DNA of 64,000 nt from Serinibacter arcticus. Lineage in GTDB: Bacteria; Actinomycetota; Actinomycetes; Actinomycetales; Beutenbergiaceae. Below the pieces are notes generated by a model, which had not been told where the DNA came from, made no database searches, and saw only the letters and a program-made list of their open reading frames with translations. The translations under genes and the position numbers were made by a program. Where the stretch lies: NCBI RefSeq assembly GCF_003121705.1, contig NZ_PYHR01000002.1:1674001-1738000 (forward strand). Reading direction: 5' to 3'. This document shows positions 56,491 to 62,832 of this stretch, in pieces. How positions within the stretch are numbered: the first letter of the stretch is position 1; every line of letters starts with the position of its first letter.

Positions 56491-58164
56491 TCAGGGCTGC
56501 GGCGGCCCGCCGACCTCGGCGGACGCCGTCGGGGCCGCCCCGGCCGCGGGCTCGGGCGCCGCCCCGTCGGCCGCCTCGTCCCGGTGCATCCACCGCTCGG
56601 GTCCGGCGGACCGACGCGCGCTGCGCGCCCGCTCGGCCTGCTCGACGAGGAGCTGGGCCGCGACGCCGGCGTCCAGGTGCGGCAGGCTCGGCTCGATCGA
56701 GCCCGAGCTGTGCGGCGTGAACGAGACCAGGCGAAGACGACGCTCGAGCGGGCCCTGGGTGACACCGAGGGACTGCGTGCGCTCGTGCGGCACGATCGAG
56801 AGCTCGCGGAAGATGCGTCCCTTGCGCAGCGCGATGACGCTGCCGAGCACGCGGAACGCGTTGCGCCGGTAGGCGATCGGGTCGAGCCACCGGGCGCGAC
56901 GCGGTGACGGGACCCAGCCCTCGCCGTCGTCGATCCCGGTCAGCCCGGCCTGCAGGACGGGCAGGTCCTCGTCCTCGAGCTCGGGGACCGCGAGCCTGAT
57001 CAGCATGATCAGCTCGTCGCTCGATCCCACCGGCAGGAGGACGTCGGAGGTCTCGGTGCCGTCCGAGGAGGTCCCCTGCGAGGCGAGCGTGAGCCGGGCG
57101 CGCCACCAGCCGAAGCGGCGCCAGATCGGCCCCTGCAGCACAGTGAGCGCCTGGATCCGCCCCGGCGGGATGGTGCGGGCCTTGGTCTCCAGCAGTCCGT
57201 GCCGGACGCGGAGGCCGTCGGGCGACGTGGCCACGCGGAAGTTGAACTCCGTGGAGAACCGGCTCCACAGGAAGCCGACGGCGCCGAGGAGACCGAAGAG
57301 GCTGCTGAAGATCCACTCGCCGCCGCCGCTGAGCAGGCCACCCACGACCACGCCCGTCACGCCGAGGACGACGCCGACCGTGGCTCCGTGCGCGAGGAGC
57401 GAGCCGACGAGACGCCCCGCCGGCAGGGCGAACACCTGGTGCTCGGGCGCCTCGGGGGCCAGTCGCCGGCCGGCCGGGCGGGCCGGGCGGGCCGGGTTGG
57501 CAAGGTTGGCCGGTTTGGCCGGGCCGGTCGGGGCGGCGCCGTCGACCGCCGGGGCGGTCACGCCGTCGGCACCCACGACCGCGTCGGCGACCTCCGCGGG
57601 CGAGGTGGCGCCCTCGAGGTCGGCGTCCTCGACCGAGTCGATGTCGACGCCCGCCGCGCGGGCCAGGATCTCGTTGCGGACGTCGCTGGCCTCGTCCATC
57701 GTCAGGTAGGCCAGCGACATGTTGGCCTCGGCGCCGCCGGCCGACTCGACCTTGATGCCGGCGAAGCCGAAGATCCGGCCGAGGATCGGCTGGGTGACCT
57801 CGACGGCCTGGATGCGGGTCAGGCGCGCCACCCGCTCCTTGCGGAAGAAGATCCCGGAGCGCTGGACGACGGCCTCGGTCGTGATCGCGTACTCCGTCCG
57901 CCGCCAGGCGAAGTAGGAGTAGGTCAGGCCGATGAGGGTCGCCACGAGGATGACGCCCGCGAGGATGAGGACGAGCGTGAGGACGGGGAGGTCGATGCGG
58001 AGCAGGTCGTCGAGCCCCTGGATCACGAGGATCACGACGAGCGCCGCCGCGATCTTCCAGGCGTTCAGGAGCGGCGTCACCCGGTGCAGGCGACGCCAGG
58101 CGGTCCCGTCGACCGGCGGGGTTCCCGCCGGGCCGGGCTCGGGCGGGAGGGCGGCGTCGGTCAC
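56491..58164 (-). CDS. Multi-PH-domain membrane protein (YdbT-like)
   Basis: 557 residues. Two hydrophobic segments (about 35-75) are followed by a bacterial PH (bPH2) domain (YFAWRRTEYAITTEAVVQRSG, RIQAVEVTQPI), a linker rich in Ala/Pro, another membrane pair (about 255-300) and two more PH-like repeats (GRIQALTVLQGPIWRRFGWW; ERTQSLGVTQGPLERRLRL). It corresponds to B. subtilis YdbT, partner of YdbS. The GTG overlaps the stop of the smaller PH gene by four bases. Confidence 0.88.
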   Translation of the reverse strand: MTDAALPPEPGPAGTPPVDGTAWRRLHRVTPLLNAWKIAAALVVILVIQGLDDLLRIDLPVLTLVLILAGVILVATLIGLTYSYFAWRRTEYAITTEAVVQRSGIFFRKERVARLTRIQAVEVTQPILGRIFGFAGIKVESAGGAEANMSLAYLTMDEASDVRNEILARAAGVDIDSVEDADLEGATSPAEVADAVVGADGVTAPAVDGAAPTGPAKPANLANPARPARPAGRRLAPEAPEHQVFALPAGRLVGSLLAHGATVGVVLGVTGVVVGGLLSGGGEWIFSSLFGLLGAVGFLWSRFSTEFNFRVATSPDGLRVRHGLLETKARTIPPGRIQALTVLQGPIWRRFGWWRARLTLASQGTSSDGTETSDVLLPVGSSDELIMLIRLAVPELEDEDLPVLQAGLTGIDDGEGWVPSPRRARWLDPIAYRRNAFRVLGSVIALRKGRIFRELSIVPHERTQSLGVTQGPLERRLRLVSFTPHSSGSIEPSLPHLDAGVAAQLLVEQAERARSARRSAGPERWMHRDEAADGAAPEPAAGAAPTASAEVGGPPQP

Positions 58165-58655
58165 AGCCCGGCCAGCCGCGACTCGCCGAGCTGCGTGAGG
58201 CGGTCCTTGAGCCGCGCGGCCTCGGCGCTCAGCAGACCCGGGATCGTGGCGTCCGTGCTGGCCGAGGCGGTGTGGAGCTTGACCTCCGCGATCCCGAGCC
58301 CGCGGGTCAGCGGGCCGGAGGAGACGTCCGTGAACTGCATGCGGCCGTAGGGCACCACGACGAGCGTGCGGAACAGCACGCCCTTGCGGACGAGCAGGTC
58401 CTCGTCGCGCTCGGCGTAGCCCACGGCCCGCACCTGACGCGGGACGAGCCACACGGTCCACACGAGCAGCACGGCCACGACGACGGCCGCCGTCCACACC
58501 CAGCCACCGAAGATCACCCCGAGCACGATGCCGGCGACGAGCGGGAGGCCCAGCCAGATCGCGGCGGTGATCAGGCGCGCCCTGATCAGCTTGTCGGAGA
58601 CGCGGACCCAGGTCACGCCGTCGGGCTCGAACGGATCCTGCTGCGGAAGACTCAT
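58161..58655 (-). CDS. PH-domain membrane protein (YdbS-like)
   Basis: A 164-residue protein: two hydrophobic segments (about 28-70) and one bPH2 domain (RAVGYAERDEDLLVRKGVLF, VPYGRMQFTDVSSGPLTRGLG). It is the YdbS-type partner of the larger PH protein downstream and is coupled to it (GTGA). This pair in other actinobacteria follows folK and DUF3180, as here. Role unclear (membrane stress resistance in Bacillus). An in-frame ATG three codons earlier is possible. Confidence 0.88.
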   Translation of the reverse strand: MSLPQQDPFEPDGVTWVRVSDKLIRARLITAAIWLGLPLVAGIVLGVIFGGWVWTAAVVVAVLLVWTVWLVPRQVRAVGYAERDEDLLVRKGVLFRTLVVVPYGRMQFTDVSSGPLTRGLGIAEVKLHTASASTDATIPGLLSAEAARLKDRLTQLGESRLAGL

Positions 58656-58719
58656 GGCCCACATGGTGCCAGGTGGGCCCGTGCCCGTGGGGGCCCGGGG
58701 GCGCGAGTCCCCCGGCGTC

Positions 58720-59206: not shown

Positions 59207-60754
59207 TCACTCGTACCAGTCGAGCGCGAGCCAGCGGACCTGCTCGCGGTCGGGCGCGGTCTCGGCCAGCACGACGACGGGGCCGCCGCCGAGACCGGGC
59301 AGGATCGCCTGCGGCTCCAGCTGGGCCCACGGCACGAGGACGGTGGCGCTCGAGTCGACGCCGGGGAGCGGGAGCTCGACGCCGTCGTGGACGCCGACGA
59401 GGTCGCCGACGGTGAGGATCTCGACCTCGACGCCGGACCGGCTCGCCGACGCGAGCGTGATCGCCTCGGCAAGGTCACCCGGGCCGAGCGTGGTGCGGAC
59501 GGTGACGACGGCGGAGTGCAGGTCGCCGCCCCGGGTCGTGGTGCGCGCCAGCGGGGACACGCCGGTCACCTCGATGCCGGCGGCGGCGCCGAGGGCGCGC
59601 ACGGTGCCGGCGAGCTCGGTCTGCGCGGCACCGCCGCGGCCGGACAGCACGAGGCGGGCGGGCAGCGGGGCATCGACGCTCGGGCGGCGGGACTGGACGG
59701 CCTGGAGCGCGGTCGGCGGGACGAGGTCGGAGGCGGGGCCCGGTTCGGGCTCGGGGTCCGGTCCGGGCTCGGCGGCAGGGGCGGGCGCAAGCTCGTCCGC
59801 GATCTCCGGGGGCAGCGTGCGGACGGTCGTGCCGAGGTCGGCCTGGTCGATCTCAGGCTCGATCTCGGGCTCGTCGGCGGGCGCCAGCTCGTCGGCCGGG
59901 GCAGGCTCGACGGCGGCCGCCTCCCGCAGCGAGCCGACCTCGGGTTCGAGGTCGGAGCTTCCCGCCGTCGCGCCGCTCGGTGCGAGAACGGGAACGGGTG
60001 AGGCAGGGGCGGCCGACGCGGCGGTGGCACCGGCCGCGAGGGCCCCGGCCCCGAGGGCACCGCCGGTGATGCCCGCCAGGGTGCCGGGGACGTGGTGCTG
60101 GGCGACGCCGCGACCGCTGACCAGCGAGTCGAAGTCGGGGGCGGCGTCGTGCTCGGCGCGATCACCGCGGTCCTCGACCGGCTCGACGGCGGCCGGCTCG
60201 GCCTCGAGGGCGTCGGCCTCGGGGTGCGAGGTGTCGTCGTCCGCGTCCAGCTCCACGACGGGAACCGGCGCGAGGGGGACGGGAGCCACGGGGACGGGCG
60301 TGGGCACCGCAACCGGCGCGGGCGCCGACGGCACCACCGGGGCGGAGACCGGAGCAGGAGCCTCGACGGGCGTGGCCGAGACCGACGGCGTGGCAGCCGC
60401 AGCCACTGCGCCGCCCTCGTGCGCGACCACGCGACGGGGGCGCCGGATGCTGACCTCGACGTCGAGCACGGGCACGCCGAGCGAGGCCTCGGGGCGGTGC
60501 AGCGTCACCTCGACGGCGTCGACGTCGACCGCGTCGCGCACGGCGCCCGCCACACCCTCGGCGCGTGCGAGCAGCGACGGGTGGGTCCAGGAGAGCGCCT
60601 CGGCCGCCGCCCTGGCGGCGGCGGCGAGGTCGATCTCGTGGTCGGCGTGCAGCACGAGATCGGCGAGGAACGGCTCGTAGCGCTCGGCGTCGCCCGCGGT
60701 GGCGGCCACGACGCCGCGACCCGCGAGGCCGACGATCCGGAAGGTGTCAGTCAC
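59207..60754 (-). CDS. Degenerate FolB-FolK fusion protein with long linker
   Basis: A 515-residue open frame where folB-folK is expected. Residues about 1-113 resemble dihydroneopterin aldolase (FRIVGLAGRGVV, LADLVLHADHEIDLA, VDAVEVTLHRPEAS), but the tyrosine helix is missing and the catalytic Lys of the HKPxA motif is Arg. Residues about 359-515 resemble the pyrophosphokinase FolK (GIEVTGVSPLARTT, LVPWAQLEPQAIL), yet the RxxRWGPRTLDxD block holding the Mg-binding Asp pair is deleted. The middle is about 230 residues of Ala/Pro/Glu. The frame is intact, so a new non-catalytic role is possible. GTG 60754 is set by TAGGGT seven bases upstream. Confidence 0.7.
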   Translation of the reverse strand: MTDTFRIVGLAGRGVVAATAGDAERYEPFLADLVLHADHEIDLAAAARAAAEALSWTHPSLLARAEGVAGAVRDAVDVDAVEVTLHRPEASLGVPVLDVEVSIRRPRRVVAHEGGAVAAAATPSVSATPVEAPAPVSAPVVPSAPAPVAVPTPVPVAPVPLAPVPVVELDADDDTSHPEADALEAEPAAVEPVEDRGDRAEHDAAPDFDSLVSGRGVAQHHVPGTLAGITGGALGAGALAAGATAASAAPASPVPVLAPSGATAGSSDLEPEVGSLREAAAVEPAPADELAPADEPEIEPEIDQADLGTTVRTLPPEIADELAPAPAAEPGPDPEPEPGPASDLVPPTALQAVQSRRPSVDAPLPARLVLSGRGGAAQTELAGTVRALGAAAGIEVTGVSPLARTTTRGGDLHSAVVTVRTTLGPGDLAEAITLASASRSGVEVEILTVGDLVGVHDGVELPLPGVDSSATVLVPWAQLEPQAILPGLGGGPVVVLAETAPDREQVRWLALDWYE

Positions 60755-60761
60755 GTTCCCC

Positions 60762-60767
60762 ACCCTA
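60762..60767 (-). promoter_or_regulatory. -10 element (TAGGGT) of the FolB-FolK-like gene, leaderless type
   Basis: TAGGGT on the minus strand is 7 bases before GTG 60754, and only 35 bases downstream of the ftsH stop. Confidence 0.5.

Positions 60768-60801: not shown

Positions 60802-62832
<2,031 letters not shown>

What the first reader, a model, noticed from the sequence alone, without database searches (positions are those of the whole stretch)
59207..60754. Folate locus replaced by one inactive-looking FolB-FolK fusion; folE and folP missing
The flanks (ftsH on one side, DUF3180 and two PH genes on the other) define the usual actinobacterial folate cluster. Between them is one frame of 515 codons. 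Its ends resemble FolB and FolK but lack the FolB tyrosine helix and catalytic lysine, and the FolK WGPRTLDxD metal motif. folE and folP are absent here. The frame is undamaged, with its own leaderless promoter. Inference: the lineage lost de novo folate synthesis (or moved it) and the relics were fused and retained for another function.
Basis: partly seen in the sequence, partly recalled or inferred. Interest (0 to 1): 0.8.

Follow-up and report, generated by a model that had tools for sequence, protein, structure and literature searches.

The report
Dead folate double-enzyme kept by selection
A small group of actinobacteria has lost the genes for making folate (vitamin B9), yet has kept one two-part folate enzyme whose catalytic residues are almost all gone but whose folded parts are still protected by selection, which suggests the dead enzyme has a second job.

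Summary
Window 59207-60754(-) is an intact 515-codon frame with an N-terminal FolB fold and a C-terminal FolK fold (AlphaFold pLDDT 93 each; top PDB matches are dihydroneopterin aldolase and HPPK). Nearly all catalytic and pterin-anchoring residues are gone. The host is a Serinibacter (Beutenbergiaceae). Its 4.06-Mb genome (99.7% complete) has no folE, folK or folP (the only pterin-binding hit is MetH-sized), but keeps DHFR and FolC, so it should depend on external folate. The same combination occurs in all six genomes of one clade (three Serinibacter plus three other genera). The 17 relatives with a complete locus have an intact FolB-FolK fusion. The fusion is therefore ancestral; relics were not fused later. 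folE and folP were probably lost once, and in all six genomes the dead fusion has a TAnnnT leaderless promoter 12-13 nt before its GTG. dN/dS is 0.24-0.29 in the two domains; the linker is little constrained. This is a double pseudoenzyme with a retained non-catalytic role, probably as a protein partner or scaffold, perhaps for the adjacent membrane protein DUF3180 (inferred). No folate transporter was identified.

The parts
59207..60754 (-). pFolBK: intact 515-aa frame, FolB-like domain + low-complexity linker + FolK-like domain (double pseudoenzyme)
60419..60754 (-). FolB-like (T-fold) domain, residues 1-112; catalytic Lys, Tyr and pocket residues lost
   Evidence: AF2 pLDDT 93.1; best PDB match M. 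tuberculosis DHNA 1nbu, E 1.2e-6, TM 0.80; residue table; dN/dS 0.29
59663..60418 (-). Pro/Ala/Glu-rich linker, residues 113-364, not conserved
   Evidence: 8 invariant columns of 252 against 39/112 and 42/151 in the domains; substitutions spread over codon positions 79/81/107
59210..59662 (-). FolK-like (HPPK) domain, residues 365-515; RxRxxxWGPRT catalytic loop deleted, DxD lost
   Evidence: AF2 pLDDT 93.4; best PDB match HPPK 2qx0, E 6e-10, TM 0.85; dN/dS 0.24
60762..60767 (-). TAGGGT, -10-like (TAnnnT) leaderless promoter element 13 nt before the GTG
   Evidence: signal type described in PMC3160421
58720..59184 (-). DUF3180 membrane protein gene, starts 22 nt after the pFolBK stop
   Evidence: Pfam PF11377 E 1.5e-22; adjacency kept in all six genomes; spacing
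60802..62832 (-). ftsH, upstream anchor of the ancestral folate operon
58161..58664 (-). PH-domain (bPH_2) gene 1 of the conserved downstream block
56491..58164 (-). PH-domain gene 2 of the conserved downstream block

Best explanation
A common ancestor of Serinibacter and three related genera had the normal operon ftsH-folE-folP-folBK-DUF3180-PH-PH. It lost folE and folP (deletion between ftsH and folBK) and became dependent on external folate, which it still reduces (DHFR) and polyglutamylates (FolC). The ancestral bifunctional FolB-FolK protein lost both active sites but kept its two folds, gained (or unmasked) a leaderless promoter, and has since evolved under purifying selection as a double pseudoenzyme. 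Shown computationally: gene loss, active-site loss, clade monophyly, conserved folds and promoter, protein-level constraint. Inferred: folate dependence in life; that the protein acts without catalysis and probably without pterin binding, because pterin-anchoring residues are gone too, most likely as a protein partner or oligomeric scaffold. The adjacent DUF3180 membrane protein is the first candidate partner (this last step about 35% likely).
For: Genome census: folE 0/6 in the clade and 18/18 outside; FolK 0/6 against 17/18 (the exception is G003, 580 contigs); stand-alone folP hits outside but only a MetH-sized frame (~1200 aa), or none in G006, in the six. DHFR and FolC in all six. Same locus and gene order in all six. 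In 5 of the 6, pFolBK directly follows ftsH, whereas a folE frame follows or overlaps the ftsH stop in intact relatives. Clade monophyletic, support 1.000, sister to the folate-competent Beutenbergia-sized genome. Catalytic columns lost while scaffold and C-terminal tail (VPW...VRWLALDW) columns are mainly 5/5 kept. dN/dS 0.29 [0.17-0.50] and 0.24 [0.15-0.36], like the neighbours DUF3180 and PH1. Third-position excess of substitutions in the domains (p 7e-4 and 8e-9), not significant in the linker (p 0.06). Confident AF2 folds matching DHNA and HPPK. TAnnnT at -12/-13 in 6/6, background 0.0003.
Against: No expression or interaction data. No folate transporter was found (TIGR04518 0/11; PF03092 only weak hits), so the uptake route is open. 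dN/dS is somewhat higher than in the intact fusions measured (0.07-0.21), so constraint is partly relaxed. The G005 copy is broken by two frame shifts (probably assembly errors: folC and DUF3180 are split there too). AF2 was guided by an alignment containing intact relatives, so the fold is partly assumed. The link to DUF3180 rests on adjacency alone. FolE2 was not searched.
Confidence: 0.8

Rival explanations
1. The protein is a folate or pterin sensor or salvage factor: catalysis is lost but it still binds pterins or folate, for example to regulate uptake or store folate.
For: It kept both pterin-enzyme folds in organisms that must import folate. The threonine of the FolK ARTxx stretch is kept 5/5.
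Against: The FolB Glu of the LIET stretch (position 74 in the S. aureus enzyme, the pterin anchor of the fold, own knowledge) is lost in 3/5. FolK Asn55-type and Phe123-type residues are lost 5/5, and the Trp loop is deleted.
Confidence: 0.15
2. It is a passenger: a slowly decaying relic kept only as a translated leader or coupling device for the downstream DUF3180/PH genes.
For: DUF3180 starts 22 nt after its stop; gene order is conserved.
Against: Amino-acid constraint in the two domains (dN/dS 0.24-0.29), no such signal in the linker, and invariant residues specific to the clade (E27, L43, R64; FolK-domain A18, E81, S105) need protein-level selection. A leader would not conserve residues at its start.
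Confidence: 0.06
3. It is still a folate enzyme with a rebuilt active site.
For: The second FolK Asp became Glu in 5/5, so a metal-ligand-like residue remains at that position.
Against: Lys, Tyr, the WGPRT loop, Asn and His are gone in most or all, and the partner enzymes FolE and FolP are missing from the genome, so there would be neither substrate nor consumer.
Confidence: 0.03
4. Folate genes moved elsewhere in the genome and the local copy is redundant.
Against: Whole-genome profile searches find none of FolE1, FolK or a stand-alone FolP in six genomes of 95-100% completeness, while the same searches ring in the relatives and in most control genomes.
Confidence: 0.02

Closest known systems
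Bifunctional FolB-FolK (DHNA-HPPK) of Streptococcus pneumoniae (PDB 2cg8) and the intact fusions of Ruania, Occultella, Cellulomonas and Actinomyces
   Same: Same domain order, same folds, and orthologous locus in the actinobacteria
   Different: Active sites lost, catalytic loop of FolK deleted, long variable linker, folE and folP gone
Dihydroneopterin aldolase FolB (PF02152; M. tuberculosis 1nbu)
   Same: T-fold, TM 0.80, 27% identity
   Different: No catalytic Lys or Tyr; 14.8 bits against a Pfam cut-off of 31.8
HPPK FolK (PF01288, TIGR01498)
   Same: HPPK fold, TM 0.85
   Different: No Asn10/Asn55/Glu77/Asp95/Asp97-type residues, loop deleted; 12.4 bits against a cut-off of 25.7
Pseudoenzymes in general (own knowledge: catalytically dead, fold-conserved proteins acting as scaffolds or regulators)
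   Same: Fold kept, catalysis lost, purifying selection kept
   Different: Two fused dead domains of one pathway kept after the pathway itself was lost; no DHNA/HPPK pseudoenzyme turned up in the papers searched

Membership tests
FolB (dihydroneopterin aldolase) | T-fold architecture | tested here: met
   AF2 pLDDT 93.1, Foldseek to 1nbu/1dhn TM 0.78-0.83
FolB (dihydroneopterin aldolase) | Catalytic Lys (VHKP) and Tyr (NY/DY) residues | tested here: not met
   44/44 in intact relatives, 0/5 in the clade
FolB (dihydroneopterin aldolase) | Pfam curated score | tested here: not met
   14.8 against 31.8 bits; intact relatives 114-120 bits
FolB (dihydroneopterin aldolase) | Aldolase activity | not testable with these tools
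   needs purified protein
FolK (HPPK) | HPPK fold | tested here: met
   AF2 pLDDT 93.4, Foldseek to 2qx0/5etq TM 0.85
FolK (HPPK) | Metal-binding DxD and WGPRT catalytic loop | tested here: not met
   Loop deleted; neither Asp is kept as Asp in any of five
FolK (HPPK) | Pfam/NCBIfam curated score | tested here: not met
   12.4 against 25.7 bits; TIGR01498 12.0 against 54.1
Pseudoenzyme (retained, functional) | Loss of catalytic residues with fold conserved | tested here: met
Pseudoenzyme (retained, functional) | Purifying selection on the protein | tested here: met
   dN/dS upper bounds 0.50 and 0.36; third-position excess
Pseudoenzyme (retained, functional) | Demonstrated non-catalytic function | not testable with these tools
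   needs interaction or deletion experiments
Pseudogene in decay | Frame disruption or neutral substitution pattern in relatives | tested here: not met
   Intact in 5/6; the sixth (G005) has frame shifts also in folC and DUF3180
Folate auxotroph | No folE, folK or folP in the genome, folate-using enzymes present | tested here: met
   FolE2 not searched
Folate auxotroph | A folate transporter | tested here: inconclusive
   No FolT; only weak PF03092 hits
Folate auxotroph | No growth without folate | not testable with these tools
   needs culture

The most novel reading that the evidence does not exclude
The actinobacterial FolB-FolK protein has a second, non-folate role that is old and important enough to outlive the loss of folate synthesis, probably through a physical partnership with DUF3180 or another product of the ftsH-to-PH block; the dead Serinibacter-group protein would be that role laid bare.
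Probability: 0.4. Interest if true: 0.75.

Novelty: new variant of a known kind. Interest (0 to 1): 0.6.

Why it matters
FolB and FolK are treated as pure folate enzymes, and FolK as a drug target. A lineage that has thrown away the pathway but kept a catalytically dead FolB-FolK under selection in four genera points to an unrecognised non-catalytic role and gives a natural separation-of-function mutant. It also predicts folate dependence for a group of actinobacteria, which is directly testable and useful for culturing them.

Tried and rejected
Relocation of folate genes: rejected by whole-genome searches. Late fusion of two relics: rejected because the intact fusion is ancestral. The ECF S-component gene near metH in Serinibacter (G000:C2:1172653-1173066) looked like a FolT candidate, but similar genes are present in folate-competent relatives, it matches no NCBIfam model, and it was not found in G006, G022 and G023; rejected. 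PF03092 hits are weak and mostly under the cut-off, in folate makers too. PabB as extra evidence: the clade lacks the third chorismate-binding enzyme seen in four of the five folate makers tested, but so does the folate-competent G001, so it is only weakly consistent. The degenerate FolB profile over 149 genomes of the order finds nothing above 51 bits outside the clade, against 176-185 inside. Pseudogene decay from the broken G005 copy: discounted because folC and DUF3180 are split there too. Literature on Serinibacter, folate auxotrophy, dead DHNA/HPPK and DUF3180 gave nothing.

Full report
What is there. The frame at 59207-60754 on the minus strand is open for 515 codons from a GTG. It lies between ftsH and a DUF3180 gene followed by two PH-domain genes. 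Curated profiles hardly see it: FolB 14.8 bits (cut-off 31.8) at the N-terminus and HPPK 12.4 bits (cut-off 25.7) at the C-terminus.

Identity of the host. The window lies in a 4.06-Mb genome, 99.7% complete. A congeneric genome (G004) has the contig length and coordinates of Serinibacter arcticus K3-2, so the window is from a Serinibacter, family Beutenbergiaceae. Names of the other clade genera are not given by the tools; by taxonomy Salana and Miniimonas are candidates (own inference).

Homology. All but one of the 24 family genomes carry a FolB-FolK fusion at the same place; the exception, G003, is a 580-contig assembly. Most fusions are plainly intact (HGVLPEERR, NY, VHKPEAP, GGNxGD, WGERTLDxD); two tested score 114-120 bits for both Pfam families. 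Six genomes carry the altered form: G000, G004, G005 (Serinibacter) and G006, G022, G023 (three other genera). Alignment with intact relatives aligns both domains end to end. AlphaFold2 gives pLDDT 93.1 and 93.4, and Foldseek finds M. tuberculosis dihydroneopterin aldolase (TM 0.80) and HPPK (TM 0.85) as best solved structures. The alignments included intact relatives, so the fold prediction is not wholly independent.

Active sites. Of columns at least 90% conserved in intact relatives, the catalytic ones are lost: FolB His of HG (0/5), Arg of EER (0/5), Tyr (0/5), Lys (0/5), and the Glu of LIET kept in only 2/5; FolK GSN-type Asn (0/5), Asn of QPDxLN (0/5), Glu (0/5), the RxRxxxWGPRT loop deleted, both Asp changed (the second to Glu in 5/5), His lost in 4/5, Phe lost in 5/5. 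The structural columns and the C-terminal tail VPW...VRWLALDW are mainly kept in 5/5. Residue roles are from established knowledge of DHNA and HPPK; mutants of the matching residues appear among the structural hits (for example HPPK N10A, N55A, E77A, R92A, D95A, D97A, H115A, F123A and DHNA K98A, Y53F).

Pathway. FolE1 is missing in 6/6 of these genomes and present in 18/18 others. FolK is missing in 6/6 and present in 17/18; the exception is the fragmented G003. The only pterin-binding hit in five of the six is a MetH-sized frame of about 1200 aa, and G006 has none. DHFR and FolC are present in all six. No FolT was found and PF03092 gives only weak hits, so the uptake route is unknown. FolE2 was not searched.

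History. A concatenated HPT-FtsH-PH1-PH2 tree puts the six in one clade (support 1.000), sister to G001, which has the size of Beutenbergia cavernae and an intact locus. In the intact relatives examined a folE frame follows or overlaps the ftsH stop; in five of the six pFolBK follows instead, and in G005 there is an insertion of about 3 kb. All six have TAnnnT with its first T 12 or 13 nt before the GTG, the hallmark of leaderless genes (PMC3160421), against a background of 0.0003 per position. The most economical history is one loss of folE and folP and of both active sites in the stem of the clade, with the fusion itself much older. The order of these steps was not resolved.

Selection. Between G000 and G004 dN/dS is 0.29 [0.17-0.50] for the FolB part and 0.24 [0.15-0.36] for the FolK part, close to DUF3180 (0.23) and PH1 (0.20), and somewhat above the intact fusions measured (0.07-0.21). 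Substitutions favour third positions in the domains (p 7e-4, 8e-9) but not significantly in the linker (p 0.06). Invariant columns: 39 of 112 (FolB part), 8 of 252 (linker), 42 of 151 (FolK part). Some invariant residues are new to the clade (E27, L43, R64; FolK-domain A18, E81, S105). The broken G005 copy is discounted because its DUF3180 and folC are split too. A profile of the dead FolB form finds no further lineage among 149 genomes of the order (a sample, not exhaustive).

Mechanism. Catalysis is excluded, as far as sequence can, by residues and by the missing partner enzymes. Pterin binding is unlikely because anchor residues are gone. What is kept is the fold, many scaffold positions and the tail, which fits a scaffold or protein partner. 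The adjacent DUF3180 gene, kept next to FolBK in all six genomes, is the first candidate partner (inference, about 35%).

Verdict. A real, well-supported double pseudoenzyme in a predicted folate-auxotrophic clade; its function is inferred, not shown.

Noticed in passing
G000:C2:1172653-1173066 (loci L151, L164): ECF S-component-like gene near metH in all three Serinibacter genomes; similar genes occur in folate-competent relatives; substrate unknown.
   Followed up: partly
L169 (G005), pFolBK and DUF3180; also folC at G005:C1:1892069-1893366: Several genes of G005 are split by frame shifts, which look like assembly errors.
   Followed up: partly
L006, L011, L012, L020, L022, L023 and others: Intact FolB-FolK fusions of Ruania and Occultella relatives carry a long Pro/Glu-rich C-terminal extension ending in a conserved W-x-P-L-x-R-type motif; the dead forms lack it.
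   Followed up: no
G006 whole genome: No pterin-binding domain at all (no MetH hit), unlike the other five genomes of the clade.
   Followed up: no
L070: 6988-9335; L169 between ftsH and pFolBK: Insertions of about 2.3 kb and 3.3 kb inside the otherwise conserved block in S. arcticus and G005.
   Followed up: no
G001 (size of Beutenbergia cavernae): Only two chorismate-binding-enzyme hits although folate genes are present: no clear separate PabB.
   Followed up: no
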